Shown: one piece after another, positions 1-12,696 of the stretch
Layout: the number at the start of each line of letters is the position of its first letter
Position numbering within the stretch: the stretch's first letter is position 1
Origin: an uncultured Lachnospiraceae bacterium
GTDB lineage: Bacteria; Bacillota; Clostridia; Lachnospirales; Lachnospiraceae
Direction of reading: 5' to 3'
Length of the DNA stretch: 12,696 nt
NCBI GenBank assembly: GCA_902766655.1
Contig: CACXEL010000292.1
Coordinates: forward strand, 1 to 12,696
The notes under the pieces: generated by a model
Told to the model about the DNA's origin: nothing
What the model saw: the letters and a program-made list of their open reading frames with translations, nothing else
Database searches by the model: none
Program-made: the position numbers and the translations under genes

Positions 1-972
1 CAGTATCTGGAGGAGCAGTTCCAGGCAGCCGGTTATGAGACCATCCTGACCTTCTCCGACAACGTCGCCGACCGCCAGGTCAATGACATCCAGAACATGA
101 TCGCTGAAGGCGTTGACCTTCTGATCGTAGCCGCCATCGACGGCGAGGCTCTGAACACAGCCATGAACGAGGCTGCTGAGGCCAACATCCCGGTCATCTC
201 CTATGACCGCCTGATCCTGAACGACGCTGTCTCCTACTACGTATCCTTCGACAACTACACCGTCGGCAAGCTCCAGGGCACCTTCGTCAAGGACACCCTT
301 GATCTCGACAACGCCGGCGATGCCGTCTACAACATCGAGTTCACCGCCGGCGATCCCGCCGACAACAACGCCGGCTACTTCTTCAACGGCGCTTACGACG
401 TCCTTTCTCCGTACATTGAGAGCGGTGTCCTGAATGTCGTCTCCGGCCAGACCGATTTCACCTCCGTCGCCACCAACCAGTGGTCCACCGACACCGCCCT
501 TGAGAGAGCCCAGAACCTGCTCGGCTCCTACTATGCGGACGGCACTCAGCTCGACGTATGGCTCTGCTCCAATGACTCCACCGCCCTCGGCGTAGCCCAG
601 GCCATCACCTCCGACTATGCAGGCACCAACCCCGTCATCATCACCGGCCAGGACGGCGACGAAGCCAACCTCAAGAACATCGTCGACGGCATCCAGACCA
701 TGACCGTTTACAAGAACGTCGCCAACGAAGCCATCGTCACCCTCGGCCTTGCCCAGGCTATGATGGAAGGCAAGACCATCGACGAGAGCCTCTGCGATTC
801 CTTCGGCATCGAGTGCGCTTACGACGTTGAGTCCTATGAGACCTCCGCCGGCAACAAGTGCCCCTCCTTCCTGCTGGTTCCCTCTGTCATCACCAAGGAC
901 AACCTTCAGGATCTGGTCGACACAGGCCTCTACACCATGGGTGAGGACGGCTATCTGGCAGCTGTCAAGTAA
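1..972 (+). CDS. chvE: Sugar-binding protein of a multiple-monosaccharide ABC importer (5' partial)
   Basis: The reading frame is open from base 1, so the start, signal peptide (a lipoprotein signal would be expected in a Gram-positive) and first part of the N-lobe lie upstream; 323 residues are visible. It is a periplasmic-binding-protein-like type I fold of the ChvE/XylF group. Motifs seen in the fragment are ISYDRLI near residues 66-72, FDNYTVGKLQ near 83-92, WLCSNDSTALG near 187-197 and TGQDGDEAN near 215-223 followed by an MTVYKN segment; the last two line the sugar site in this family. It would capture an aldose outside the cell and deliver it to the MmsA/MmsB proteins encoded next. A hairpin lies between it and the ATPase gene, the usual way of making more binding protein than transporter. 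Codons are strongly C-ending, as in the next two genes, suggesting high expression. The ligand cannot be read from the sequence. Confidence 0.93.
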   Translation, partial: QYLEEQFQAAGYETILTFSDNVADRQVNDIQNMIAEGVDLLIVAAIDGEALNTAMNEAAEANIPVISYDRLILNDAVSYYVSFDNYTVGKLQGTFVKDTLDLDNAGDAVYNIEFTAGDPADNNAGYFFNGAYDVLSPYIESGVLNVVSGQTDFTSVATNQWSTDTALERAQNLLGSYYADGTQLDVWLCSNDSTALGVAQAITSDYAGTNPVIITGQDGDEANLKNIVDGIQTMTVYKNVANEAIVTLGLAQAMMEGKTIDESLCDSFGIECAYDVESYETSAGNKCPSFLLVPSVITKDNLQDLVDTGLYTMGEDGYLAAVK

Positions 973-1009
973 TTATCCGATATCCGCATAACGAACTAAA
1001 TACCGCAGA

Positions 1010-1040
1010 GCGGGACAGATTTCTGATCCGTCCCGCCCTT
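1010..1040 (+). terminator. Intercistronic hairpin, probable attenuator between chvE and mmsA
   Basis: GCGGGAC (1010-1016) pairs with GTCCCGC (1030-1036). The stem continues through one mismatch into GAT/ATC around a five-base loop, and CCTTTT follows. It lies 38 bases after the stop codon of the binding protein and just before the ribosome site of the ATPase. The short T run suggests partial termination, which would leave the transporter genes on a minority of transcripts. Confidence 0.7.
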
Positions 1041-1054
1041 TTACTTGAATGAAG

Positions 1055-1074
1055 AAAGGGGGAGATTACTTTTG
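1055..1074 (+). promoter_or_regulatory. Ribosome binding site that selects the TTG start of mmsA
   Basis: AAAGGGGGAG at 1055-1064 stands seven bases before TTG 1072-1074. An earlier in-frame TTG at 1045 has no good ribosome site and sits directly after the terminator, and the extra N-terminal residues it would add are not typical of the family. Starting at 1072 gives the family-like N-terminus MADIILEMKNITKEFPG. Confidence 0.75.
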
Positions 1075-2607
1075 GCTGATATCATTCTGGAAATGAAGAA
1101 CATCACCAAAGAATTTCCGGGCGTTAAAGCTCTGTCAGACGTTAACCTGACAGTAGAACGAGGCGAGATTCATGCTCTGATCGGAGAAAACGGAGCCGGC
1201 AAATCGACCCTCATGAACGTGCTCTCAGGCACCTACCCAATCGGTACCTATACCGGCGACATCTATTACAACGGCGAATTATGTCAGTTCAAGACGCTCA
1301 AGGACAGCGAGGCCAAGGGTATCGTCATCATCCACCAGGAGCTGGCCCTGATTCCGCTTCTCACCATCGGCGAGAACATGTTCCTGGGAAATGAAATCAA
1401 GAATGCCCAGGGCATCATCGACTGGAACCGGACCTTCCACGAGGCCGAGACCCACATGGCCCAGGTAGGTCTTCACGAGTCTGCTCAGACGCTGATCAAG
1501 GACATCGGCACAGGCAAGCAGCAGCTTGTCGAGATCGCCAAGGCCCTGTCGAAGGAGGTCAAGCTCCTCATCCTCGACGAGCCCACTTCTTCCCTGAACG
1601 ACGAGGATGCCAGGATGCTCCTCGACCTTCTGATCAGCTTCAAGAAAGAAGGACTGACTTCCATCATAATCACACACAAGCTCAACGAGATCATCTACTG
1701 CGCAGACAAGGCCACCATCATCCGTGACGGCTCCACCATCGAGACCCTGGTCAAGGGTGTCGATGAATTTTCCGAAGACCGGATCATCAAGGGTATGGTA
1801 GGCCGCGCCATGGACGACCGTTATCCCGACAGGGCCCATAACGTTTCAAACGAAGTGAGCCTCGAAGTCCGCAACTGGACGGTACACCATCCTCTCTATG
1901 AGGAAAAGATTGTCGATGACAACGTCAGCTTCAAGGCCCACAAGGGCGAGGTCGTCGGCTTCTCCGGCCTCCAGGGCGCAGGACGCACGGAGCTGGCCAT
2001 GTCCATCTTCGGACACAGCTACGGCACCGGAATCTCCGGTGAGCTCTATCTCCACGGCAAGAAGACCGATCTCAAGTCCCCTGAGGCAGCCATCAAGGCA
2101 GGCGTCGCCTACGTCACCGAGGACAGAAAGACCAACGGCCTGATCCTCGGCGAGAGCATCCGCTTCAACACCACTCTGGCGAGACTCGACAAGGTCTGCG
2201 ACAGAGGCATTATCAACACCGTTCTTGAGACGGACGTAGCCGAGAAGATGACGGCTGAGATGGGTACAAAGACCCCCTCCGTCCTCCAACAAATCGGCAA
2301 CCTCTCCGGCGGCAACCAGCAGAAGGCCCTGCTCGGAAAGTGGATGTTCACAGAGCCGGATATTCTCATCCTCGATGAGCCGACCCGAGGCATCGACGTA
2401 GGTGCCAAGTACGACATCTACTGCCTGATCAACAAGATGGTCGGCGACGGCAAGACAGTCATTATGATTTCCTCCGAAATGCCGGAGCTCCTTGGCATGT
2501 GCGACCGCATCTATGTCATGAACGAGGGCAGGATCGTCGGTGAATTCCCGGCGGCCGGCACGACGCAGGAAATGATCATGGGCGCGATCATCCGCTCATC
2601 CAAATAA
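1072..2607 (+). CDS. mmsA: Double-domain ATPase of a multiple-monosaccharide ABC importer
   Basis: This 511-residue protein (TTG start chosen from the ribosome site) has two fused ABC ATPase domains, the standard layout and length of MmsA/GguA, XylG and RbsA. N-terminal half: Walker A GENGAGKST (38-46), Q-loop HQE (88-90), a degenerate signature GTGKQQ (146-151), Walker B LLILDEP (165-171) and H-loop His202. C-terminal half: a degenerate Walker A GLQGAGRTEL (299-308) without the P-loop Lys, as is normal in this family, then LSGGNQQK (411-418) and Walker B ILILDEP (431-437). It would sit on the cytoplasmic face and drive sugar uptake through the permease encoded 22 bases downstream. It is intact and colinear with the usual chvE-mmsA-mmsB order. 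Confidence 0.95.
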   Translation: MADIILEMKNITKEFPGVKALSDVNLTVERGEIHALIGENGAGKSTLMNVLSGTYPIGTYTGDIYYNGELCQFKTLKDSEAKGIVIIHQELALIPLLTIGENMFLGNEIKNAQGIIDWNRTFHEAETHMAQVGLHESAQTLIKDIGTGKQQLVEIAKALSKEVKLLILDEPTSSLNDEDARMLLDLLISFKKEGLTSIIITHKLNEIIYCADKATIIRDGSTIETLVKGVDEFSEDRIIKGMVGRAMDDRYPDRAHNVSNEVSLEVRNWTVHHPLYEEKIVDDNVSFKAHKGEVVGFSGLQGAGRTELAMSIFGHSYGTGISGELYLHGKKTDLKSPEAAIKAGVAYVTEDRKTNGLILGESIRFNTTLARLDKVCDRGIINTVLETDVAEKMTAEMGTKTPSVLQQIGNLSGGNQQKALLGKWMFTEPDILILDEPTRGIDVGAKYDIYCLINKMVGDGKTVIMISSEMPELLGMCDRIYVMNEGRIVGEFPAAGTTQEMIMGAIIRSSK

Positions 2608-2629
2608 TCGGAAAGGGGACTAATTTAAC

Positions 2630-3805
2630 ATGAATGACAAGAAAAACTCTATCAACTGGAAAGATTTCCTGGGCAAATATACGATGGTCATCGCCCTGGT
2701 CGTGGTATTCTTCCTTTTCGTTTATCTGACCGGCGGCCGCCTCTTATTCCCGCAGAACATGTCCAACCTCCTTCTGCAGAACGGCTACGTTCTCGTCATG
2801 GCCTGCGGCATGCTCCTCTGCATCCTGACCGGCGGTAACATCGACCTCTCCGTCGGCTCCGTCATCTGTATGGTCGGCGGCGTCGCAGCCGTTATGATCA
2901 CGAACCTCCAGATGAATCCCTTCCTGGCCATCATCGTCGGCCTGGCCATGGGTATCCTGGCAGGTATCTGGCACGGCTACTGGATCGGATATGTCCGCAT
3001 TCCTCCCTTCATCACCACCCTGGGCGGTATGTTCATCTTCCGCGGCATCGGCCGTCTGGTCCTCAACTCCAAGACTGTCGCTGTCCAGAATGAGACCTTC
3101 CTGAACATCTTCACAGCCTACATCAGGATTCCGGGCCTTGACGGTGATGGCTACATGACCTCCCCCATCGTCGTGGGCGTCATCGCATCCGTCATCATGT
3201 TCCTGGGCGTTGTCCGCTCCAGAGCCAACAAGAAGAAGAACGGATACAGACAGAACAGCGCCATCGCCGACTTCGGCAAGACGGCCGTCATCTGCGCCGT
3301 CCTCCTCTTCTACTGCTGGAAGCTGGCCAACTACAAGGGCATCTCCGTTATGCTCGTCTGGGTCGTGGCCATCTGCCTGATCTACAACTTCATCACCTCC
3401 AAGACTGCATTCGGCCGTTACTTCTACGCTGTCGGTGGTAACGAGAAAGCCACCAAGCTTTCCGGTATCAACACCAACAAGGTCTACTTCCTGGCATACG
3501 CCAACATGGGCCTCCTGGCCGGCCTCTGCGGCCTCCTCTGCCTGGCCCGTATCGGCTCCGTCAACGGCTCCACCGGCACCTCCTTCGAGATGGACGCCAT
3601 CGGCTCCTGCTTCATCGGCGGCGCCTCCGCTTACGGCGGATCCGGTACCATTCCCGGCGTCATCATCGGTGCTCTCCTGCTCGGTGTCATCAACATGGGT
3701 ATGTCCATCCTCGGCATCGGCGACTCCTGGCAGTATGTCGTCAAGGGCGCCGTCCTCCTGGTAGCTGTTATCTTCTCTGTTGTTACCAAGAAGGGCAAGA
3801 ACTGA
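2630..3805 (+). CDS. mmsB: Permease of a multiple-monosaccharide ABC importer
   Basis: This 391-residue, very hydrophobic protein belongs to the BPD_transp_2 permease family. It starts at ATG 2630, 11 bases after GAAAGGGG (2611-2618). Visible membrane segments lie near residues 17-35, 50-67, 76-92, 98-118, 176-195, 217-231, 238-254, 287-306, 342-360 and 370-386. Family motifs are TGGNIDLSVG (67-76), the cytoplasmic coupling stretch around FGRYFYAVGGNEKATKLSG (261-279) and IGGASAYGGSGT (329-340). A charged insert near 197-216 followed by extra hydrophobic sequence fits the longer MmsB/GguB type (about 390-400 residues) rather than RbsC (about 320). It forms the membrane channel for the sugar bound by the first gene product and closes the transporter operon. 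Confidence 0.94.
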   Translation: MNDKKNSINWKDFLGKYTMVIALVVVFFLFVYLTGGRLLFPQNMSNLLLQNGYVLVMACGMLLCILTGGNIDLSVGSVICMVGGVAAVMITNLQMNPFLAIIVGLAMGILAGIWHGYWIGYVRIPPFITTLGGMFIFRGIGRLVLNSKTVAVQNETFLNIFTAYIRIPGLDGDGYMTSPIVVGVIASVIMFLGVVRSRANKKKNGYRQNSAIADFGKTAVICAVLLFYCWKLANYKGISVMLVWVVAICLIYNFITSKTAFGRYFYAVGGNEKATKLSGINTNKVYFLAYANMGLLAGLCGLLCLARIGSVNGSTGTSFEMDAIGSCFIGGASAYGGSGTIPGVIIGALLLGVINMGMSILGIGDSWQYVVKGAVLLVAVIFSVVTKKGKN

Positions 3806-3878: not shown

Positions 3879-4054
3879 CGAAAAGGATTTCTCCGACTCA
3901 CCTGTTCCGTAGCATCTGCCCATTTCGGTGGTCCGCAGTAACTCTCCCTCAGGCACATGTCTCCCCTCTTCCCTTCTTCCCCAATCGGTGGTATCCTGAA
4001 TAGAGAAAAATGACCGCCGGGTGCCGGCCCAGCGGCCTCAGAAAGGACCAACCC
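3879..4054 (+). promoter_or_regulatory. Intergenic region with a possible extended -10 promoter
   Basis: No gene is seen here. The stretch TGGTATCCT (3989-3997) fits an extended -10 element (TGnTATnnT), about 58 bases before the chosen start of the membrane-protein gene, but no good -35 hexamer is present. A seven-base repeat CGGTGGT occurs twice, near 3926 and again at 3986-3992, about 60 bases apart; its meaning is unknown. Confidence 0.3.
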
Positions 4055-4696
4055 ATGAAAGAATCCTACTCCCTGACAACAAACCGCCTCAAGGGCGAGT
4101 ATAAAGCCGCCTTTGAGACCGTAGAAAAATACAGAATTGCCAGCCTGATCGAAGACGAGGACATCGACACCCGGATGATCGATCTCGTGGAAAAGCTTCA
4201 GAATGCCCAGGACTTCGGCGAGCCGGTCTCCACCGTAATCGGGCCGGACGCCGAGCGTTTCTGCTGGGGCTTCTTCAGCGAATGCGAGATGCGCAGCCTT
4301 CCGGAATCTGTCCTCCGCTCTTCCCACCGGATGGTCTGGGTGGTCTTCATTTTCACCGTCATCGAGCTGGCCCTCGAGGCAGCCGGCCGGGGACTCAGTG
4401 CGCGCGGCGGGATCGAGCCTGCCTGCATTTTCGCGGGGCTGGCCTGCGGTATTCTGCTGAACGTGGCGGCTTACCTGGCTATGCGGCCCTTGATGCGGCT
4501 CCTTCCAAAGGTTCGCGCAAGTCTCTGGACCAAGCTGCCGACGGCTGCGCTTCTCATTAGCCTGGCTGTTTTCATCAAATTCGGACCTGCTTGGAATCTC
4601 CGCTTCCCGGCCTGGGGACTTCTCCTTGTCAGCGGTACCGATCTGGCGGTTTACTATGTGCTCAAGGTAAAGACAGACCGCAGACGGCGTGACTGA
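4055..4696 (+). CDS. Hypothetical four-helix membrane protein with a helical cytoplasmic N-terminus
   Basis: ATG 4055 is preferred over an in-frame ATG at 4010 because GAAAGGA (4041-4047) lies seven bases before it; the product is 213 residues. Residues 1-90 are soluble and mostly helical. A stretch with VSTVIGPDAERFCWGF (58-73) resembles the DUF1048/DUF1700-type (HAAS-like) N-termini often found in small Firmicute membrane proteins encoded with PadR regulators. Four membrane segments follow near 92-109, 120-143, 160-178 and 184-204, ending in a basic tail KTDRRRRD. No PadR gene is adjacent here, so it appears to be an orphan. It lies alone between the transporter terminator and the convergent small gene. 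Its function is not known; the family resemblance is by eye and uncertain, but the gene itself looks real. Confidence 0.75.
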   Translation: MKESYSLTTNRLKGEYKAAFETVEKYRIASLIEDEDIDTRMIDLVEKLQNAQDFGEPVSTVIGPDAERFCWGFFSECEMRSLPESVLRSSHRMVWVVFIFTVIELALEAAGRGLSARGGIEPACIFAGLACGILLNVAAYLAMRPLMRLLPKVRASLWTKLPTAALLISLAVFIKFGPAWNLRFPAWGLLLVSGTDLAVYYVLKVKTDRRRRD

Positions 4697-5229: not shown

Positions 5230-6384
5230 ATGGGCTTTACGATAGAGGATATGATGACTGTTTGCGCTTCCCGCTACAGCCTTAAAATGGAGGCCGGCAG
5301 GAACGGGTGGTCCAACTCCATCAGCTGGATCGTCATGGTCGAGGACTTGTCCATCCTCCACAATTTTGCCGGCAAGGACCTGGCTGTGACCACCGGATGG
5401 GGCTTCCAGGAACCCAGTGAACTGCTCTCCCTGGTCAGGGAGCTCAGCAGGCAGGAGGCATCCGGCCTGTTGGTCAATACGGGCATGTATATCATGGAAA
5501 TCCCCCGGGAGGTACTTGCATTCTGCGATGCAAACAACTTCCCGCTCATGACCGTACCCTGGGCCATACCGCTCTTTGAGATGATCAAGGACCTGAACAT
5601 CCGGATCCTTCTCCAGGGATTCACGGATGAGCAGATCACAGGCGCTTTGATCCATGCGATCGAGAATCCGGCTGATGCAGAGACAAGCCGCAAGGAGCTT
5701 CTTCCCTACTTCGACGTGGACGGCATCTTCCAGATAGTCACGATCGAGACCGGAGACCTGGACAAGATGGACACCGTGGAGAGGCGCAGGATCAGCTTCC
5801 AGCTCCAGCTCTACCTGGAGTCCATCAGCCACAATGCCTCCTTCTTCTATTTTGATGCAGCCTTTGTCATGGTGACCAATGCAGTCCCTGAACCGGACCT
5901 TCGCGTCATCCTGGAAAGGTTCGTCAAGCGTCTCTCTCTGCGCATACCGGACCGAACGTTCCGTGTGGGCGTCGGCAGCCCGATGAAGGATATCTCCAAT
6001 CTCCACCTGGCCTACATGCGCGCCCAGGCAGCCATGCGGATGGCCGCGCACACGGACAGGAGCCTTATATGGTTCGATGAGATGGGGCTTTACCGGATGC
6101 TCAGTCTCATTCAGGACCCGATGCTGAAAAGAGAGATGGGCGAAGACCTCCTCCGCCCCATTCTTGACCATGACAAGGCACATGGCACTGATTATGTGAA
6201 GATGCTGGAGATTTACCTCGAAACAGGCGGCAGCATCAAGGCAGTCGCCGAGGAGACCTTCACCCACAGAAATACAGCCATCTACCGGCTTGGCAACATT
6301 CGGAAGCTCCTCGGGAGTGACCTGGACAGCCCGGATGAACGAATGAAGTACTGGATAGCCTGCATGTTGATCCATACGCCTTGA
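5230..6384 (+). CDS. PucR/CdaR-family transcriptional regulator
   Basis: This 384-residue protein starts at ATG 5230, nine bases after AAGGGAG (5214-5220). Residues 1 to about 125 match the PucR N-terminal domain (start MGFTIEDMMTV, a core with VMVEDLSILHNFAGKDLAVTT near 36-56, then NNFPLMTVPW near 102-111). A middle GGDEF-like/CdaR region follows (about 130-290). The C-terminus is the PucR helix-turn-helix, with LEIYLETGGSIKAVAEETF near 326-344 and THRNTAIYRLGNIRKLLG near 345-362. PucR-type proteins usually sense a small metabolite and control a neighbouring catabolic operon, often as activators. The gene is convergent with the sugar operon on the right and lies downstream of the transporter on the left, so both are plausible targets. 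The effector is unknown. Confidence 0.92.
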   Translation: MGFTIEDMMTVCASRYSLKMEAGRNGWSNSISWIVMVEDLSILHNFAGKDLAVTTGWGFQEPSELLSLVRELSRQEASGLLVNTGMYIMEIPREVLAFCDANNFPLMTVPWAIPLFEMIKDLNIRILLQGFTDEQITGALIHAIENPADAETSRKELLPYFDVDGIFQIVTIETGDLDKMDTVERRRISFQLQLYLESISHNASFFYFDAAFVMVTNAVPEPDLRVILERFVKRLSLRIPDRTFRVGVGSPMKDISNLHLAYMRAQAAMRMAAHTDRSLIWFDEMGLYRMLSLIQDPMLKREMGEDLLRPILDHDKAHGTDYVKMLEIYLETGGSIKAVAEETFTHRNTAIYRLGNIRKLLGSDLDSPDERMKYWIACMLIHTP

Positions 6385-6392
6385 GGGGCGGA

Positions 6393-6483
6393 TGAAAATG
6401 AGAATCAGGGACGGTCCTTTTTTCTCATTTTTCGAATAATTCGAAAAATGAGAAAAAAGGACCGTCCCTGATTCTCATTTTCA
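6393..6483. repeat. Perfect 91-bp palindrome made of two inverted hairpin units (BIME/REP-like)
   Basis: Bases 6393-6437 are the exact reverse complement of 6439-6483 around a single central base (6438). Each arm is itself an inverted repeat: AAAATGAGAA (6395-6404) pairs with TTCTCATTTT (6422-6431) around a core with CAGGGACGGTCC. It is therefore a 37-base hairpin unit present twice head to head, joined by an 11-base CGAATAATTCG-type centre. It starts 8 bases after the PucR-family stop and ends exactly on the TGA of the convergent isomerase gene, so it supplies that stop codon and probably acts as a two-way terminator. GGGACGGTCC-containing repeats recur in many Firmicute genomes, as far as I know; this suggests a dispersed REP/MITE-type element. 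Confidence 0.9.
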
Positions 6484-7827
6484 GTACCTTACAAGAGGAA
6501 TATTCAGCATATGCCCCACCATCTCCAGACTGTCCGCCGCATCGCCGTAGATCACCGCGTAATGGGGCTCCCAACCGCATTCCACGGTCTTCTGGACGAT
6601 CTCCTCAGCCCGGGCGTCCGTTTTCACAGTAACGCTCGTACCGAAGAACTGCTTCGGCTTGTCCAAAGCCTCCCCTGAAGTGATCAGGAAGCGGAAGCCG
6701 CCCTCAGGCGCTCTCCCGACCCGGAATATGGTCACCCGCGGTGCCTTTTTGCACCCGAACTCCAGCGTCGGGCCGATGTGGCGGTTGCAATGCTCTCCGA
6801 TCACGGCGCCGGTGTCCTCGCGGGCCAGGGAGCAGGGCGCCATACCGCAGTGCCAGAAGGTGATGGTGTTCTCATTTTCATCCAGGGAGACGGGGTCGCC
6901 GAAGAAGGATGGCTGCCCTGTGAGCTGCATCCCCATATACATGGAGAGGGCGCCGTAGGCATCCGTCTCGCAGCTGGCGGGCACGCCCAAATCGTTCATG
7001 AGTCCCAGGACCGTGCACACCGGCGTGCCGAAGGACGTGAAGAAGTCCGGCCAGCAGCGCGAACAGAGAGCGCCGATCCCGTTGTCACGGACGTATTCGG
7101 CGTAGGCCTTGTAGAGCCTCGCGAAGTCCAGGCGATTCTTCTCAGGCACTTTGGAGAGCCCAACCGTCCGCTTCTCCGCGTCCGCAAGGTATTCCCGGCA
7201 CTCTTCGTCCGTGAAACTCTTCGCCTTGTCGATCAGCTCTCTGGCCTCGATGGACTTGAGCCGCACTCCGAAGGCGGCAAGCATCTCGGCATCCAGCGCC
7301 CGGCCGAAGCCGAAGCCCTGCGGCGTCTGGCCGATGGCTGCCAGCTTTAGACCCTTAAGCGAGTGCACCAGCTCAGCCGCTTTGACTGCCGCCGTGAGCT
7401 TCCGCCTGACCTTTTCTTCCCCCGGCGCCCCGAAAATGAAGTCCACCGGCTCCTTTTTCAGCTGCCGCAGAGTGTTGCCCGCCGAGTAGGCGCCGGTCAG
7501 CGAATTGAGGCGCAGCCTCCCTCCGTCTATGACCGGTTCCCGGAGGGCCCAGAGCACCACCGGCACATTCGGAAATCTGTGGATGATCTCCTGCGTGTAG
7601 GCAGCGTTCGCGAACGTGATATTCTGAAGAACGATGAGGTCCGGATCCAGCGTATCCAGAAAGGTGTTGAGCTTGTCCAGGGACAGCAGCATTTCATCCG
7701 GGACTCGGACGTCGCCGCAGATCTCCCTCAGCAGCCCGACTGACTTTTCGAACTCTTTTCCGGCGCTCTCAAGGTGAAAAGTGGGTACGCCGATCGGCAC
7801 ATATGCCGCCTGAAATGATTTCTTCAT
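6481..7827 (-). CDS. L-fucose-isomerase-family protein, probable aldose-ketose isomerase of the operon
   Basis: This 448-residue protein belongs to the L-fucose/L-arabinose isomerase superfamily. C-terminal features are CETDAYGALSMYMG (286-299) and FFGDP (308-312), so Glu287 and Asp311 are 24 residues apart. That is the same spacing as the metal ligands Glu337 and Asp361 of E. coli FucI. FWHCG (324-328) and GWEPHYAVIYGD (418-429) follow, with His422 a likely third ligand. It is shorter than FucI (about 590), like many uncharacterised members. It is the last gene of the operon, 15 bases after the reductase stop, with GGGGTGG as its ribosome site. In context it should isomerise the hexose released by the glycosidases to a ketose for the transaldolase; in a sulfo-TAL pathway that is sulfoquinovose to sulfofructose. 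Substrate is inferred from neighbours only. Its stop codon lies inside the 91-bp palindrome. Confidence 0.85.
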   Translation of the reverse strand: MKKSFQAAYVPIGVPTFHLESAGKEFEKSVGLLREICGDVRVPDEMLLSLDKLNTFLDTLDPDLIVLQNITFANAAYTQEIIHRFPNVPVVLWALREPVIDGGRLRLNSLTGAYSAGNTLRQLKKEPVDFIFGAPGEEKVRRKLTAAVKAAELVHSLKGLKLAAIGQTPQGFGFGRALDAEMLAAFGVRLKSIEARELIDKAKSFTDEECREYLADAEKRTVGLSKVPEKNRLDFARLYKAYAEYVRDNGIGALCSRCWPDFFTSFGTPVCTVLGLMNDLGVPASCETDAYGALSMYMGMQLTGQPSFFGDPVSLDENENTITFWHCGMAPCSLAREDTGAVIGEHCNRHIGPTLEFGCKKAPRVTIFRVGRAPEGGFRFLITSGEALDKPKQFFGTSVTVKTDARAEEIVQKTVECGWEPHYAVIYGDAADSLEMVGHMLNIPLVRY

Positions 7828-7842
7828 CCCGCCACCCCATTT

Positions 7843-8706
7843 TCAGGCCTTGCCCGTCCTGACGACCTTGACGGTCGCGCAGAAGTCTTCTTTGCCGATG
7901 CCCATCTCCAGGGCCTTGTCGTAGACCCGGACGGCATTGTCGAGTCCCGGCATGGCGAAGCCGCACTCCCTGGCCAGGTTCTGGCAGATATGGACGTCCT
8001 TGTGTTCATTTTCAACGGAGAAGGCCGTGGTGTAGTCCTCGTGGGAGAGAACGTCCTTCTTGGAATCCAGGTACCAGTTGCCGGCGCCGCCGTAGGAAAT
8101 GGCCTGGGCGTAGGTCAGGATGTCGATCCCGTTCAGGGCGGCCAGCGTAGAGGTCTCGTTCACGCCGTTCTGGATCTGGGAGACCAGGGCGTTGTGGCAT
8201 ATCTTCATGACCAGGCCCTTGCCGTTCCCGCCCAGGCGGATGATGTTCTCGCCCATGTAGAGGAGGATGGGCTTCATTTTTTCGTAAGCCTCCTCCGAGC
8301 CGCCCACGTAAATGCCCAGCTTGCCGGCGATGGCGGCAGGCTTGCTCTTGACTACCGGCGCATCCAGGAACTCGGCACCGGTCTTCTTGACCATCTCCGA
8401 GATCTCAACGGATACAGAAGGATCGATGGTGCTCATGTCGATGCAGGTCTTTCCGGCCCCCAGTGCGGGCAGGATTCCCTCATAGACCGCTCTCGAGTGC
8501 TCGGACCTCGGCACCATGGAAATGAAGACATCCGCCTTCTCCGCCACTTCCCTCGCGCTCCCGCAGGCCACGCCCCCCAGGGCCGCCAGCTTGTCCGTCT
8601 TGTCCTTCACGACGTCGAAGACATAGACGGTATCGTCATGCTTTCTGATGATATTTTCACACATGGACTCGCCCATGATGCCGAGTCCCACAAATCCGAT
8701 CTTCAT
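7843..8706 (-). CDS. 3-hydroxyisobutyrate-dehydrogenase-family reductase, candidate sulfolactaldehyde reductase
   Basis: This 287-residue beta-hydroxyacid dehydrogenase has a Rossmann motif GLGIMG (7-12), Asp31 at the end of the second strand (VYVFDVVK, favouring NAD(H) over NADP(H)), VPRSEHS (65-71), IDMSTIDP (89-96) and the catalytic Lys168 and Asn172 in GKGLVMKICHN (162-172). The usual substrate loop DAPVSGG is replaced by DAPVVKSKPAAI (115-126). In E. coli YihU, the sulfolactaldehyde reductase, this loop carries Arg123-Thr124-Ser125 for the sulfonate; by alignment this protein has Lys120-Ser121-Lys122. A basic loop here suits an anionic C3 aldehyde, so reduction of sulfolactaldehyde to dihydroxypropanesulfonate is the best guess. 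Another hydroxyaldehyde, or the reverse oxidation, remains possible. ATG 8706 has AAAGGAG just upstream, next to the transaldolase stop. Confidence 0.88.
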   Translation of the reverse strand: MKIGFVGLGIMGESMCENIIRKHDDTVYVFDVVKDKTDKLAALGGVACGSAREVAEKADVFISMVPRSEHSRAVYEGILPALGAGKTCIDMSTIDPSVSVEISEMVKKTGAEFLDAPVVKSKPAAIAGKLGIYVGGSEEAYEKMKPILLYMGENIIRLGGNGKGLVMKICHNALVSQIQNGVNETSTLAALNGIDILTYAQAISYGGAGNWYLDSKKDVLSHEDYTTAFSVENEHKDVHICQNLARECGFAMPGLDNAVRVYDKALEMGIGKEDFCATVKVVRTGKA

Positions 8707-8718
8707 GCCCTCTCTCCT

Positions 8719-9402
8719 TTACTTGGCCGTGTTGTCCCAGGCGTTGCGGAAGTTCTCGATGCCCTGGCGGGTGTAGGGATGGGTCATAGCGTCCTTGTAG
8801 ACGGCCATGCCTGCCGTCACGATATCGGCGCCGGCGATGGCGCAGTCGGCGATCTGCCTGCCGGTCCTGACCGCCGCGCAGATGATCTGAGTCTTCCCGT
8901 AGAAGCCGTAATTCTTGTAGATCTGAACAATATCGGCGATATACTGTTTGCCGTCCTCGCCGTTGGCCTCCTTCCAGCCGATGAAGGGGGAGACAAAGAG
9001 AGAGCCGTTCTTGGCCGGCAGGATGGCCTGGGAGGTCGTGAAGACAAGGGTCACGTTGGTACGGATGCCCTCATTCTCAAGAGCGCGGGCTGCCGCAATA
9101 CCGTCGGGCGTGCAGGGGATCTTGATGACAAAGTTGTCAGAGATGGCCGAAATCTTTCTGGCCGCCTCCACCATCTCGTCAGCCTTCTCGATATAGGGAT
9201 CGATCTCCACGGATACCGGGAAGACTTCCTTTCCCTCAAGGCCTTCCTCCCGGATCCAGTCCGCTATGTCATGGATGGCGGTCAGGAAGGGCTTACCGGA
9301 ATTCATGATGTGTTTGGGGTTGGTGGTCACGCCGTCGATGCCGAAGGTGTGATAGGCCTCCCGGATCTCATCAAGCTTTGCGCTGTCCAAAAAATATTTC
9401 AT
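8719..9402 (-). CDS. Short transaldolase/fructose-6-phosphate-aldolase-family protein
   Basis: This 227-residue protein has the size of the short TalA/FSA family. Conserved parts are FLDSAKLDEI (4-13) with Asp6, DGVTTNP (23-29) with Asn28, SVEIDP (64-69), the Schiff-base Lys94 in FVIKIPCTPDG (91-101) and IVTAGMAVY (194-202). The normal phosphate site is changed: SPFVGR becomes SPFIGWK (138-144; Trp143 for Arg) and AASF becomes AAVR (176-179; Ala177 for Ser). A Lys-His pair follows NP (30-31) where Ser-Leu is common. In Firmicutes a protein of this family, SftT, splits 6-deoxy-6-sulfofructose and passes the C3 unit to a phosphorylated acceptor. Position between the YihQ-like glycosidase and a YihU-like reductase supports that role or a relative of it. 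AAGGAGG (9409-9415 on the plus strand, complement) lies six bases before the start. Confidence 0.9.
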   Translation of the reverse strand: MKYFLDSAKLDEIREAYHTFGIDGVTTNPKHIMNSGKPFLTAIHDIADWIREEGLEGKEVFPVSVEIDPYIEKADEMVEAARKISAISDNFVIKIPCTPDGIAAARALENEGIRTNVTLVFTTSQAILPAKNGSLFVSPFIGWKEANGEDGKQYIADIVQIYKNYGFYGKTQIICAAVRTGRQIADCAIAGADIVTAGMAVYKDAMTHPYTRQGIENFRNAWDNTAK

Positions 9403-9528
9403 AGTAAGCCTCCTTAAATGTGTGTCTTTCTAAATATCATGATAACTGTTCAGCACATCCGAAACAGTCTGCTCAGTCTGACAAGATCTTTGTCTGCCTG
9501 CTTATGTCCCTTCAAGACCGCGGCCTTG
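9403..9528 (-). other. 126-base gap inside the operon
   Basis: This is the only sizeable gap in the minus-strand operon. It holds the perfect ribosome site of the transaldolase gene (9409-9415) and a near-palindrome CAAGACCGCGGCCTTG (9513-9528) touching the GH31 stop codon. It also has a short inverted repeat GACAA/TTGTC (9480-9484 and 9490-9494) and a tandem CAGTCTG pair (9465-9471 and 9474-9480). I see no T-run terminator and no convincing promoter. The repeats could mark an RNA-processing site or an operator for a second transcript. Confidence 0.35.
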
Positions 9529-11502
9529 TCAGGATTTCTTTTTCACCCATATTTTCCTGATGTCAGTGACCAGCTCTCTCCAGGTGCTGGCCTTCCGGAT
9601 AAATACCGGAGGCAGACCGTGGGTGGCCACGGCCGGATATGTACCGCCGCAATACTCCTCACCGCTCAGCATGTCGATCCAGGCATCCTCCGGAAGCCAC
9701 ACTTCCCTGCGCGATGACCCCTTCTCCAGAATCGGTGCGACGAGGATATCCCGGCCCAGCAGGTATTCCGTCTTCTCGGTCCAGGCCCTCTCCTCCTCAT
9801 AGTGATAGAAGATCGGCCGCATGACCGGCGTACCCTTTTCGGTGTTCTCCTTCTCCAGGGCCTTGAGATAGCCCTTCAACGCCGCATGAACCCGACTGCA
9901 GCGTGCCAGGTGGGCCAGCAGCTCCTCGTCCTCGTCGAACTGGACGTTCCTCGATGGCTGATTGCCTTCATGGAACCTGTAAAGCGGCGAGAAGACGTTC
10001 AGCTCCTCCCAGCGAAGGAGAAGCTCGCGGCTCCGGGTCATCCGTGATACGGTCGTGTAGCCGCCGACGTCAGAATGCGCGATGCCGAACCCGCTCATAG
10101 CCAAGGACAAGGTGGCCGGAATGACCGCGCCAATCCCATCGTCCTCGGACCAGTCCACATGGTGGTCTCCCGTCCACATCATGGGCGAGCTGGCAGGCGT
10201 ACCCGTGTAGCCGGCCCTGGTGAAGAAAAAGACTTCATTCTCCTTGCCGGCCTCTCTGACTGCCTCCATGTTGAGCCTGGCCCACATGGCGGGCCACTCA
10301 TTGTGAACGTAATACGGATCTTCACCGGAAAAGAGCACGCAGTCTACGGGCAGATATTCCCCGAAATCCGCCATCCAGCCGCTCATCCCGAGGCCGATCA
10401 TATTGTCCCTGATGACGGACTTGTACCAGTCCCACGCGGCGGGGTTGGTCAGGTCGATCATGGCGGCCGGGAAGGTGGTGATGGTGACCAGGTAGTCATT
10501 TCCCGCCTTGTCCTTCACGCAGTACCCGTGCTCCGATGCATATCGGTAAAGCTCCTTCTCGATGGCCAGGAAGGGATTGATATATCCCAGGAAATGAATC
10601 CCCTTCCCCCGCCACTCTTCTATCTTCTTATCCAGGTCCTTGTAGAGTTCCCGGTCCCAGGCCCAGTTCCACATGACCTGGTAGCCGAAGCCGGTCCGCC
10701 GGCAGCCGCACCAGTCCTGGGACCAGACGCCGCAGACCGCAGCGCCCGCGCTTCGGGCGGACTCGATCTTCCTCTCGATCTCCTCTGTCCCGCCCTGGAC
10801 GGCAAGAACAGCGCCATTATAGACCCAGTCGGGAAGAGGTCTCTGACGGCCCAGGAGGCCCGTCAGCTTTTCTGACAAATCCGTGAAGGAATCAGCACGC
10901 CCGATCCAGAAGACCGGAGGCTCCTGGGTCCTGTAGGTGATCCGCCCGTCTTTGGTGAAATCGAACTCGCTGTAGCCTTTGGCTTCGGAGTGGAAGAACC
11001 ATTTTCCGCTGGTCGTAAAGGTGGGCTGGGCATAGTAGGATTCATACCGGCTGAAATGCATGGACTTCTCCGCGGACTTCATGCGCAGGCCCTTGCGGAC
11101 CAGCTTCCGCCCGATCCGGCTGGTATTCTGGTGCTCGGCGACAAAGATCCTGACCTTTTTGCCCGCGAGGTCGAACTCGGAATGGATCTCGCCGCACCCG
11201 TAGATATGGAGCCCCTCCTCCGCGGGAAATGAAATCCTGTACCGGTTCATGGCTGTCTCCCCGACCGGCTGCAGGCTGGCCCTGATGAGGCCATCCTTCT
11301 CCTCGGCAGTAAATAGGAAGCGCTCGCCTTCCCTGCTCTCGAACAGAATCCTGATACCTTTATCTGTCTTGCCTGCCCGTATCCTGTGGAGAGTCTCCCT
11401 TGTATACACCTGCTCCTGATAGCGAAAACTCCCGCGTGACATGGTGAACCGATTCTCACCCCTGCCGACGGAAACTCTGATTTTCTTTACGTATTCGATC
11501 AT
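9529..11502 (-). CDS. yihQ: GH31 alpha-glycosidase very similar to sulfoquinovosidase YihQ, with a changed sulfonate-binding residue
   Basis: This 657-residue protein is a GH31 enzyme like E. coli YihQ (recalled numbering in brackets) along its catalytic half. Catalytic residues are present: nucleophile Asp379 in GWMADFGEYLP [405] and acid Asp446 in WTGDHHVDW [472]; SLAMSGFGIAHSDVGGYTT (466-484) follows. Of the five YihQ substrate residues Gln262-Gln288-Arg301-Trp304-Tyr508, this protein has Gln236, Gln262, Trp278 and Tyr482 in register. The sulfonate-binding Arg is Gln275 (GFGYQVMW, 271-278), and a non-conserved Arg269 lies six residues earlier. It would release a hexose, in canonical SQases sulfoquinovose, from its alpha-glycoside. 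No signal peptide is seen, so it probably acts in the cytoplasm. Its ATG overlaps the GH2 stop (ATGA) with AAGGTG upstream, so translation is coupled. Fold and mechanism are secure; substrate is not. Confidence 0.93.
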   Translation of the reverse strand: MIEYVKKIRVSVGRGENRFTMSRGSFRYQEQVYTRETLHRIRAGKTDKGIRILFESREGERFLFTAEEKDGLIRASLQPVGETAMNRYRISFPAEEGLHIYGCGEIHSEFDLAGKKVRIFVAEHQNTSRIGRKLVRKGLRMKSAEKSMHFSRYESYYAQPTFTTSGKWFFHSEAKGYSEFDFTKDGRITYRTQEPPVFWIGRADSFTDLSEKLTGLLGRQRPLPDWVYNGAVLAVQGGTEEIERKIESARSAGAAVCGVWSQDWCGCRRTGFGYQVMWNWAWDRELYKDLDKKIEEWRGKGIHFLGYINPFLAIEKELYRYASEHGYCVKDKAGNDYLVTITTFPAAMIDLTNPAAWDWYKSVIRDNMIGLGMSGWMADFGEYLPVDCVLFSGEDPYYVHNEWPAMWARLNMEAVREAGKENEVFFFTRAGYTGTPASSPMMWTGDHHVDWSEDDGIGAVIPATLSLAMSGFGIAHSDVGGYTTVSRMTRSRELLLRWEELNVFSPLYRFHEGNQPSRNVQFDEDEELLAHLARCSRVHAALKGYLKALEKENTEKGTPVMRPIFYHYEEERAWTEKTEYLLGRDILVAPILEKGSSRREVWLPEDAWIDMLSGEEYCGGTYPAVATHGLPPVFIRKASTWRELVTDIRKIWVKKKS

Positions 11503-12696
11503 TTCTTCACCTTGCTCAGGGCTGCATGAAGCCTGCGGAGGAACTGCTCGCGCTTATCTTTGAGCATGATACCCATATACCCTTCCCCGCTGGCATCGGC
11601 AAAGCTCTTTGTCTTGTCACCTCCGAAAACGGCTGCCTCCGGGAAAGCCCTCTCGGCTATGGCCGTGATGGCACTCATCACGACCTTCCTGGCCTCCGCG
11701 TTCCCGCCGATCTCCTCCAGAGAGTCATGGACTGAGAAGCAGCCGGGAACGCGCTCCAGGGAGGCTGCGGTCTCCTCCACGCTCTCGAACCAGTTGACCG
11801 CGTCCATGGTCTCCTTGAAGCCCGGGAACATGAAGAGGCCTTCCTTGCCGCCGCCCTTCACTGTGATGGAATCGGTGCATCCATCCGCCCGGGCGACGAG
11901 AACGGTGCCTTCGGATGAAATGGGTACATTTTCGAAGATGAAGGTGTGGGCGCCGGCCTGTTTTCCGAGACTCTTCCCGTCCGCAAAAAGCTCCACGACA
12001 GGCTGGTTGGAGTGGATCCGTACCGTGGTGGTCTCACCCGGCCGCTCAAAGTAGCGCCGTCCGTCGATGTGGACGAAGGGATCGCGGCTGTACCAGGCCT
12101 TGTAGACGTAGTAGCTGTCCTTCCTGATCTTCCGGTCCATGGTCACCAGGCCTTTGTTGTTGCGGCCGGCGGTGCCTCCCTCATGGCGGAAGGAGGAGCC
12201 AAAGTCGAACATGTTCCAGACATAGGTGCCCCAGACGAAAGGTCTGGACGCCCAGGTCTCGCAGGCGTTCTCGTGGATGAGAACCTGGTATTCCTCAGTG
12301 TAGTCCATCTTTACAGGATTGTCGCTGTGATAAGAGATGACGCTGTCGCAGCCGTACTCGGTGATGGCGAAAGGCCGGTCCGGGTGGGCGGCGTGGTAGT
12401 CGTCGCACCACTTGGCCAGGTCGTCCATCTGTCCGCGGTACCAGCCGAAGTAGTGGTTCCAGCCGCCGGCATCCGGTATCTCATGAAGCGGGTGATCCCA
12501 GGAGGTAGGTCCTTCATGGGCGACGACCGTGGGACGTTTTGCGTCAAGCGCCTTGACCGCTTCGTTGAGATCGCGGTGGCACTGAAGAAGCTTGGGGTTG
12601 TCATTTCCGCCCAGGAGGACCTCGTTGCTCAGGCCCCAGAAGCAGATGGACGGATGGTTGTAATTCTGGGCGACCAGCTCGCGGATCTCATTTACC
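11499..12696 (-). CDS. GH2 family beta-glycosidase, C-terminal part (5' partial)
   Basis: The frame is open to the right edge of the window, so the N-terminal sugar-binding and Ig-like domains and the start are missing; 398 residues are visible. Catalytic motifs are CFWGLSNEV (18-26 of the fragment; Glu25 the acid/base) and FAITEYGCDS (109-118; Glu113 the nucleophile), with WNHYFGWYRGQ (79-89) between them. After the barrel comes WNMFDFGSSFRHEGG, then an Ig-like domain typical of DUF4982-type GH2 proteins, with PVVELFADGKSLGK as its recognisable strand pair. A C-terminal region of about 120 residues that I do not recognise follows. It would hydrolyse a beta-galactoside, beta-glucuronide or similar; the visible part does not settle which. 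It is the first visible gene of the operon and overlaps the GH31 gene by four bases, so the two glycosidases are made together. Confidence 0.92.
   Translation of the reverse strand, partial: VNEIRELVAQNYNHPSICFWGLSNEVLLGGNDNPKLLQCHRDLNEAVKALDAKRPTVVAHEGPTSWDHPLHEIPDAGGWNHYFGWYRGQMDDLAKWCDDYHAAHPDRPFAITEYGCDSVISYHSDNPVKMDYTEEYQVLIHENACETWASRPFVWGTYVWNMFDFGSSFRHEGGTAGRNNKGLVTMDRKIRKDSYYVYKAWYSRDPFVHIDGRRYFERPGETTTVRIHSNQPVVELFADGKSLGKQAGAHTFIFENVPISSEGTVLVARADGCTDSITVKGGGKEGLFMFPGFKETMDAVNWFESVEETAASLERVPGCFSVHDSLEEIGGNAEARKVVMSAITAIAERAFPEAAVFGGDKTKSFADASGEGYMGIMLKDKREQFLRRLHAALSKVKK

What the first reader, a model, noticed from the sequence alone, without database searches (positions are those of the whole stretch)
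6481..11502. Sulfo-TAL-like operon: YihQ-like GH31, transaldolase, YihU-like reductase and FucI-family isomerase
Four adjacent genes cover the steps of the known Firmicute sulfoquinovose route (glycosidase, isomerase, sulfofructose transaldolase, sulfolactaldehyde reductase). Gene families and order are read directly; the pathway is inferred from what is known of YihQ, YihU and SftT. Several substrate-site residues deviate, so this may be a diverged sulfo-TAL pathway or a sister pathway for another C6-modified or 6-deoxy hexose. In a 6-deoxyhexose version the C3 product would be lactaldehyde, reduced to propanediol.
Basis: partly seen in the sequence, partly recalled or inferred. Interest (0 to 1): 0.8.

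Follow-up and report, generated by a model that had tools for sequence, protein, structure and literature searches.

The report
Sulfosugar operon with a rewired glycosidase
A gut Clostridia genome carries the genes of a known pathway for a plant sulfosugar, but the first enzyme, which should cut the sugar free, belongs to a distinct branch that has lost the residue known enzymes use to grip the sulfur group, so its real substrate is an open question.

Summary
The four genes are real and form a minus-strand operon, with a truncated GH2 gene overlapping the GH31 start. Isomerase, transaldolase and reductase are of the sulfo-TAL type. The transaldolase is 59% identical to B. megaterium sulfofructose transaldolase and matches it at 11 of 12 active-site columns checked. 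These three proteins hardly differ from those of operons that hold a canonical sulfoquinovosidase, one of which is very close to the assayed E. rectale SftG. The 6-deoxyhexose alternative is therefore not supported. The oddity is confined to the GH31. It lies on a "Gln-type" branch, apart from YihQ and other Arg-type sulfoquinovosidases, in which the sulfonate-binding Arg (YihQ R301) is Gln, residue 474 is His and two loops are replaced. All 120 listed nearest proteins, the window's included, share Gln301 and His474. Gln-type GH31s lie in sulfo-TAL and sulfo-transketolase loci, mostly beside a GPH symporter (27 of 39; Arg-type 0 of 19), sometimes with an Arg-type gene in one cluster. They look like an alternative entry module to the same sulfoglycolysis cores. 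Whether their glycone is sulfoquinovose is not shown. The NCBIfam YihQ model accepts them.

The parts
11499..12695 (-). GH2 beta-glycosidase, 5' part cut by the contig end; best NCBIfam model beta-glucuronidase LacZ4 (252 bits, below cut-off)
   Evidence: 4-bp overlap with the GH31 start; also in L003
9529..11502 (-). GH31, YihQ-family fold, Gln-type branch (657 aa); catalytic D379 and D446 (YihQ D405, D472) kept
10678..10680 (-). codon of Gln275 = YihQ Arg301 (sulfonate-binding Arg; role recalled from the literature)
11104..11151 (-). loop 118-133, replaces the FPxWTSExGVGR(N/D)K loop of the four characterised sulfoquinovosidases
10459..10485 (-). segment 340-348 (TITTFPAAM), replaces (D/E)FGEFx(C/G)GV of the four characterised sulfoquinovosidases
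8719..9402 (-). sulfofructose transaldolase type (227 aa); Schiff-base Lys94 = B. megaterium Lys89; Trp143 where FsaA has Arg134
7843..8706 (-). sulfolactaldehyde reductase candidate, beta-hydroxyacid dehydrogenase family (287 aa; 30% identical to YihU)
6481..7827 (-). sulfoquinovose isomerase candidate, SftI/SqvD type, AraA/FucI fold (448 aa)

Best explanation
The operon encodes a sulfo-TAL (sulfofructose transaldolase) pathway whose glycosidase slot is filled by a Gln-type GH31. Proposed route: an imported alpha-glycoside that carries sulfoquinovose (SQ) is hydrolysed by the retaining GH31; the SftI-type isomerase makes sulfofructose; the transaldolase moves its C1-C3 unit through Lys94 to glyceraldehyde 3-phosphate, giving fructose 6-phosphate for glycolysis and sulfolactaldehyde; the reductase makes dihydroxypropanesulfonate (DHPS), which is exported. 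Shown here: gene families, the SF-transaldolase type, a core nearly indistinguishable from that of operons with a canonical SQase, and the separate GH31 branch with a changed sulfonate position and changed loops. Inferred: SQ as the released sugar, and a GH31 that binds another SQ glycoside than SQ-glycerol with a rebuilt C6 pocket. Transport and export in the window's own genome are not identified.
Against: No assay. YihQ R301 is, as recalled, needed for the sulfonate; 25 of 28 Q1 rows also have Tyr for Lys300, so SQ as glycone is uncertain. On the isomerase tree the Gln label is clustered (2 changes, shuffled mean 7.0, 0 of 500 as low), so the isomerase may partly follow the GH31 type. The isomerase misses the SftI cut-off (406 of 700 bits), though two isomerases beside Arg-type SQases miss it too (415 and 421). 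The reductase is nearer by HMM to tartronate semialdehyde reductase than to YihU (186 versus 153 bits). The window's operon lacks GPH, DUF4867 and TauE; a TauE search of the 76%-complete genome found nothing. In 8 of 39 loci the Gln-type GH31 has no core gene on the fetched stretch (L092, L098, L100, L150, L152, L153, L156, L160; L092, L153, L160 lie near contig ends). L154/L155 carry a much more distant isomerase and glucuronate genes beside GH31-TAL-reductase.
Confidence: 0.72

Rival explanations
1. The core is sulfo-TAL, but the Gln-type GH31 does not bind SQ in its -1 site. It removes a neutral or carboxylated alpha-sugar (glucose, quinovose, glucuronate) from a compound that also holds SQ, or serves a separate plant glycolipid headgroup eaten together with SQ.
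For: Arg301 is Gln in 41 of 41 Gln-type rows; Lys300 is Tyr in 25 of 28 Q1 rows, and the 13 Q2 rows change Tyr508 to Phe. Two loops change together with it. Arg- and Gln-type genes coexist in single clusters (L144, L089). The window's GH2 is coupled to the GH31, and L092 has another GH2 nearby.
Against: In 13 of the 16 family genomes with a Q1 gene it is the only YihQ-family GH31 found at E 1e-100, so the operon would lack an SQ-releasing enzyme of this family; GH188 was not searched. Trp304, Gln262, Gln288 and, in Q1, Tyr508 are kept. Q2 keeps Lys300 in 12 of 13 rows.
Confidence: 0.25
2. A sister pathway for a 6-deoxyhexose such as quinovose (or plain glucose): transaldolase gives lactaldehyde (or glyceraldehyde), reduced to propanediol (or glycerol).
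For: Gln301 would suit a neutral C6; aldolases of this family tolerate 6-deoxyketoses (recalled). The Gln label clusters on the isomerase tree.
Against: TAL, reductase and isomerase have 1, 0 and 2 columns that separate them from operons with a canonical SQase; the TAL is of SF-transaldolase type; TauE/SafE, DASS and DUF4867 genes in sister operons and transketolase neighbours of the Q2 group.
Confidence: 0.06
3. A glucuronate version: alpha-glucuronoside, fructuronate, then tartronate semialdehyde and glycerate.
For: The reductase scores best with tartronate semialdehyde reductase models; the GH2 resembles beta-glucuronidase LacZ4; L154/L155 hold UxuA and UxaC beside the operon.
Against: The same reductase type serves Arg-type SQase operons. 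In L154/L155 the UxuA and UxaC genes look like a classical route of their own. The window has no positive side chain at position 300 or 301.
Confidence: 0.05

Closest known systems
Sulfo-TAL (sulfo-SFT) pathway of Eubacterium rectale and Priestia megaterium
   Same: SF-transaldolase type (59% to B. megaterium), SftI-type isomerase, beta-hydroxyacid dehydrogenase reductase, YihQ-family GH31, gene linkage
   Different: GH31 is Gln-type (39% to the SftG-like L046 protein), and the window's operon has no DUF4867, SSF or TauE gene but a coupled GH2
GH31 sulfoquinovosidases (YihQ, SftG, B. megaterium and A. tumefaciens SQase)
   Different: Arg301 is Gln, Lys300 is Tyr, residue 474 is His, loops 146-158 and 366-374 replaced; 43% identity to YihQ
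Sulfo-transketolase pathway (SqwGH, SqwI)
   Same: shares the isomerase clade; Gln-type Q2 GH31s sit near transketolase genes in 8 of 12 loci
   Different: the window has no transketolase genes in its 12.7 kb
GH188 group with altered sulfonate-binding residue (PMC11465081, abstract and figure legend read)
   Same: precedent: a sulfoquinovosidase family with a subgroup changed at a sulfonate-binding residue and set in distinct gene clusters
   Different: other glycosidase family and mechanism

Membership tests
SF transaldolase (SftT/SqvA) | Schiff-base Lys and SF-type active-site residues, Trp in place of FsaA Arg134 | tested here: met
   Lys94; 11 of 12 columns as B. megaterium SF transaldolase; Trp in 29 of 29 SF-type rows
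SF transaldolase (SftT/SqvA) | cleaves sulfofructose | not testable with these tools
   needs enzyme assay
SftI as the NCBIfam equivalog model NF048012 | score above the curated cut-off | tested here: not met
   406 bits, cut-off 700; two isomerases next to Arg-type SQases reach only 415 and 421, so the cut-off fits a narrow subset
SQ isomerase of SftI/SqvD type | AraA/FucI fold | tested here: met
   arabinose and fucose isomerases, E 1e-24 to 6e-17, probability 1.00; PF02952 itself just under cut-off (27 of 29.3 bits)
GH31 sulfoquinovosidase (YihQ) | YihQ family model and fold | tested here: met
   748 bits, cut-off 553
GH31 sulfoquinovosidase (YihQ) | sulfonate-clamp Arg (R301) | tested here: not met
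   Gln in the window and in 120 of 120 listed nearest proteins (window included); Arg in the four characterised SQases
GH31 sulfoquinovosidase (YihQ) | catalytic Asp pair and the other clamp residues Gln262, Gln288, Trp304, Tyr508 | tested here: met
Sulfolactaldehyde reductase as the YihU equivalog | score above the curated cut-off of the YihU model | tested here: not met
   153 bits, cut-off 348; 30% to YihU; but the same type occurs in Arg-type SQase operons
Sulfo-TAL pathway | isomerase, SF transaldolase, reductase and glycosidase genes in one cluster | tested here: met
Sulfo-TAL pathway | dihydroxypropanesulfonate exporter | tested here: inconclusive
   no TauE match in the 76%-complete genome; other exporter families not searched there

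The most novel reading that the evidence does not exclude
Sulfoglycolysis in gut Clostridia has a second glycoside entry route. A Gln-type GH31 branch, usually paired with a GPH symporter, takes in and cuts a natural glycoside other than SQ-glycerol/SQDG (an unrecognised SQ conjugate or other sulfosugar glycoside) and feeds it into the same sulfo-TAL and sulfo-transketolase cores. Many genes counted as yihQ in the rumen would then not be sulfoquinovosidases in the known sense.
Probability: 0.45. Interest if true: 0.75.

Novelty: new variant of a known kind. Interest (0 to 1): 0.6.

Why it matters
yihQ is being used as a marker gene for sulfoquinovose degraders (PMC13219744), and the NCBIfam YihQ model accepted the one Q1 and the one Q2 protein I scanned above its cut-off (748 and 599 bits; cut-off 553). 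If Gln-type enzymes have another substrate, marker counts and pathway predictions for rumen and gut are off, and an undescribed sulfosugar glycoside may be eaten there. If they do cleave SQ glycosides, they show a second way to bind the sulfonate, against the Arg rule taken from YihQ. Either answer comes from one assay. Position 474, which also separates the types (His in 41 of 41 Gln rows, 0 of 23 Arg rows), should lie inside the rumen amplicon, to judge by the primer names (1201F, 1526R).

Tried and rejected
Idea that the whole operon serves another sugar (quinovose, glucose, glucuronate): rejected as the leading reading because TAL, reductase and isomerase hardly separate from operons with a canonical SQase. 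Idea that the 28-30% isomerase group (L056-L059) is the true SftI and the window's clade something else: rejected, since L056-L059 sit with ABC, class II aldolase and SIS genes, and L057 scores only 238 bits with the SftI model. Glycyl radical enzyme near the operon in L051 as a DHPS or propanediol dehydratase: rejected; it is 752 aa, 23% to the L045 enzyme, and looks like ordinary pyruvate formate-lyase. K for R in the reductase as a sign of another substrate: rejected. Placing a compensating Arg/Lys in the model: not possible, no model file was found in the box; group-specific basic residues are listed. Promoter/terminator scan: 2 promoter-like hits against 1.0 by chance, no terminator-like site (2.6 by chance); uninformative. 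Whether the rumen long branch is the Gln-type clade: not tested, those sequences were not at hand.

Limits: ORFs in fetched loci were called by simple scripts; mapping by tblastn. Distance windows for neighbours (1.2 kb for GPH, 2.5-4.5 kb for other transporters) were set after seeing the maps. Loci are not phylogenetically independent, so the Fisher values are only descriptive. Surroundings were fetched for 19 of the Arg-type and 39 of the Gln-type genes; G887, G1079 (Arg) and G1106 (Q2) were left out. Rows L106, L107, L108 repeat L045, L054, L051 and were dropped. L107 was still among the 5 Arg rows of TAL and reductase (4 distinct genes) and was dropped. L119 repeats L008. Trees are 'quick' ones with SH-aLRT only. 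The homologue search listed the best 120 of 4386 matches; 7995 candidates were scored. Papers on YihQ mutants and the SF transaldolase structure were not held, so the role of R301 and the residue numbers are recalled; the residues at those numbers agree with the E. coli sequence. The role of TauE/SafE proteins as sulfonate exporters is recalled. Paper searches for a Gln-type or Arg-variant SQase; none shows this branch in the listings (some capped), nor do the passages I read of PMC9594981, PMC10755693, PMC11659671 and PMC12890257. Most subscription papers are not held.
Full report
OBSERVATION. Pfam and NCBIfam agree with the families. A GH2 gene, cut by the contig end (11499-12695), overlaps the GH31 start by 4 bp and so belongs to the same operon. 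The plus-strand PucR-type regulator (5230-6384) is convergent to it. The genome is a 2.86-Mb draft in 484 contigs, 76% complete; named close relatives are Clostridia and Lachnospiraceae.

THE CORE IS SULFO-TAL TYPE. The best solved relative of the transaldolase is B. megaterium SF transaldolase (279 bits; next other enzyme 164). The window protein is 59% identical to it and 28% to E. coli FsaA. At 12 FsaA columns, 11 match the SF transaldolase, including Trp in place of FsaA Arg134, which is Trp in all 29 SF-type rows aligned. The isomerase matches only the SftI model (406 bits, under the cut-off of 700), as do two isomerases beside Arg-type SQases (415, 421). Its predicted structure (pLDDT 92) is an arabinose/fucose isomerase fold. 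PMC9594981 (passages read) names a FucI-family isomerase and DUF4867 as shared by sulfo-TAL, sulfo-TK and sulfo-EMP2. In 250 genomes of the family, the window's own included, 16 others have this isomerase at 58-71% identity; the next group drops to 28-30%.

SAME CORE, TWO GLYCOSIDASES. I fetched neighbourhoods and mapped the genes. The isomerase clade occurs with two kinds of YihQ-family GH31. One has Arg at YihQ position 301; the other, like the window, has Gln. The Arg-type of L046 scores 1262 bits against 6pnr, the E. rectale sulfoquinovosidase SftG, which cleaves pNP-SQ with kcat/KM 1.65e5 per M per s (PMC11968277, one stretch of the text and passages read). L046 also carries TAL, reductase, DUF4867, isomerase and a TauE/SafE gene, the make-up of a sulfo-TAL operon. 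Its TAL, reductase and isomerase are 72, 70 and 63% identical to the window's. Group-specific columns between Gln and Arg operons number 1 of 227 in TAL, 0 of 287 in the reductase and 2 of 448 in the isomerase, at an 80% threshold; GH31 has 35 at 85%. The Arg group was small there: 5 TAL and reductase rows, 4 of them distinct genes, and 7 isomerase rows, against 18, 18 and 17 Gln rows. On the core trees starred branches force at least 3, 2 and 2 changes of GH31 type in TAL, reductase and isomerase. In TAL and reductase the label is little clustered (4 and 3 changes; shuffled means 5.5 and 3.7). In the isomerase it is clustered (2 changes; shuffled mean 7.0, 0 of 500 shuffles as low), which speaks for some co-inheritance of isomerase and GH31 type. 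The clearest swap is L050 (Gln) and L054 (Arg): sister pairs in all three core trees, 86, 81 and 72% identical, yet their GH31s share 40%.

DISTRIBUTION. Of 397 family genomes, 26 have a YihQ-type hit at E 1e-100 (29 genes): 16 genomes with a Q1 gene (window included), 12 with an Arg gene, 1 with a Q2 gene. Three genomes (G066, G164, G291) have both Q1 and Arg (types). In 350 genomes of the family of L008 (titled Oscillospiraceae), 25 genes were found in 21 genomes: 4 Q1, 12 Q2, 8 Arg, 1 outlier; four genomes have both kinds. Butyrivibrio sp. FCS014 has one hit at E 1e-60, a Q1 gene, in an operon with GPH, TAL, reductase, TauE, isomerase and ROK (L007).

ENTRY MODULES. Near the GH31 (windows set after viewing the maps): a GPH symporter for 27 of 39 Gln-type genes and 0 of 19 Arg-type; ABC, SSF or Tct transporter genes for 2 of 39 and 19 of 19. 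L144 holds isomerase, Arg-type GH31, a binding-protein ABC transporter, Gln-type GH31 and GPH in a row beside transketolase genes; L089 has both modules too. So the two GH31 kinds look like alternative entry modules with different transporters that feed the same cores. In 8 of 39 loci no core gene was found on the fetched stretch. The window itself is an exception on transport: no GPH is adjacent, and a ChvE/GguA/GguB-type ABC system lies on the other strand, 2.7 kb away, with no proof that it belongs.

HOW IT LIKELY WORKS. SQ-bearing alpha-glycoside in; Gln-type GH31 releases the sugar; SftI-type isomerase to sulfofructose; transaldolase with glyceraldehyde 3-phosphate to fructose 6-phosphate and sulfolactaldehyde; reductase to DHPS; export. 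Steps after the GH31 rest on sequence type and shared operons; the GH31 glycone is inference. Loss of Arg301 together with two replaced loops points to a different glycoside. Trp304, Gln262, Gln288 and, in Q1, Tyr508 are kept, so an SQ glycone with rebuilt contacts is not excluded.

LITERATURE. The cow-rumen study PMC13219744 (abstract, sections 14 and 15, section 16 part 1 and passages read) reports far higher yihQ richness than in human or mouse gut. It finds 64% of 1220 and 47.5% of 1548 rumen variants on one long branch, two yihQ copies in some Ca. Limivicinus, and only a few variants that rose on SQ, among them Ca. Limivicinus ones. The Gln-type branch, common in Oscillospiraceae-like genomes and sometimes beside an Arg gene, is a plausible cause of the long branch; I did not test it, and if the SQ-enriched variants are Gln-type they would count for SQ as glycone. 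PMC11465081 (abstract and legend read) describes an analogous altered sulfonate residue in GH188. Seven library searches listed no report of this GH31 branch; many relevant journals are not held.

VERDICT. Sulfo-TAL is right for the core. The finding of interest is the Gln-type GH31 branch as a second entry module to sulfoglycolysis, a new variant of a known kind, with an unknown substrate that one assay would settle.

Noticed in passing
L154:6162-8627 and L155:6140-8605: An 821-aa protein overlapping the start of a Gln-type GH31 gene; the L154 copy has no Pfam, NCBIfam or PDB-sequence match at E 0.001.
   Followed up: partly
L154:12174-19273 and L155: After GH31-TAL-reductase the isomerase slot holds a much more divergent FucI-like protein (186 bits to the SftI model), followed by DUF937, UxuA, SDR and UxaC genes; a KDPG aldolase-like and a sugar kinase-like gene between them were only read by eye.
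   Followed up: partly
L130-L138, L141-L143 and L055 (Gln-type Q2): A second Gln-type group with Phe at YihQ Tyr508 and motif G(K/Q)QV(W/Y)WNW, near transketolase genes in 8 of 12 loci and GPH in 11 of 12.
   Followed up: partly
NCBIfam NF007746: The YihQ model accepted both Gln-type proteins scanned (window 748 bits, Q2 of L145 599 bits; cut-off 553), so annotation by this model would label them as YihQ.
   Followed up: partly
window 1-3805 (+): ChvE/GguA/GguB-type multiple monosaccharide ABC transporter, 5' end cut; relation to the operon unknown.
   Followed up: no
window 4010-4696 (+): 228-aa ORF without a family match.
   Followed up: no
L052, L089, L105, L112 (and L093): Loci with transketolase genes also hold an SF-type transaldolase and, next to it, a second, longer transaldolase-family protein (L093 from the clustering only).
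   Followed up: partly
G000:C131:1975-2583: The window's genome has a DUF4867 relative elsewhere (42% identity), which could be the missing SftX-like partner or a paralogue of other sugar pathways.
   Followed up: no
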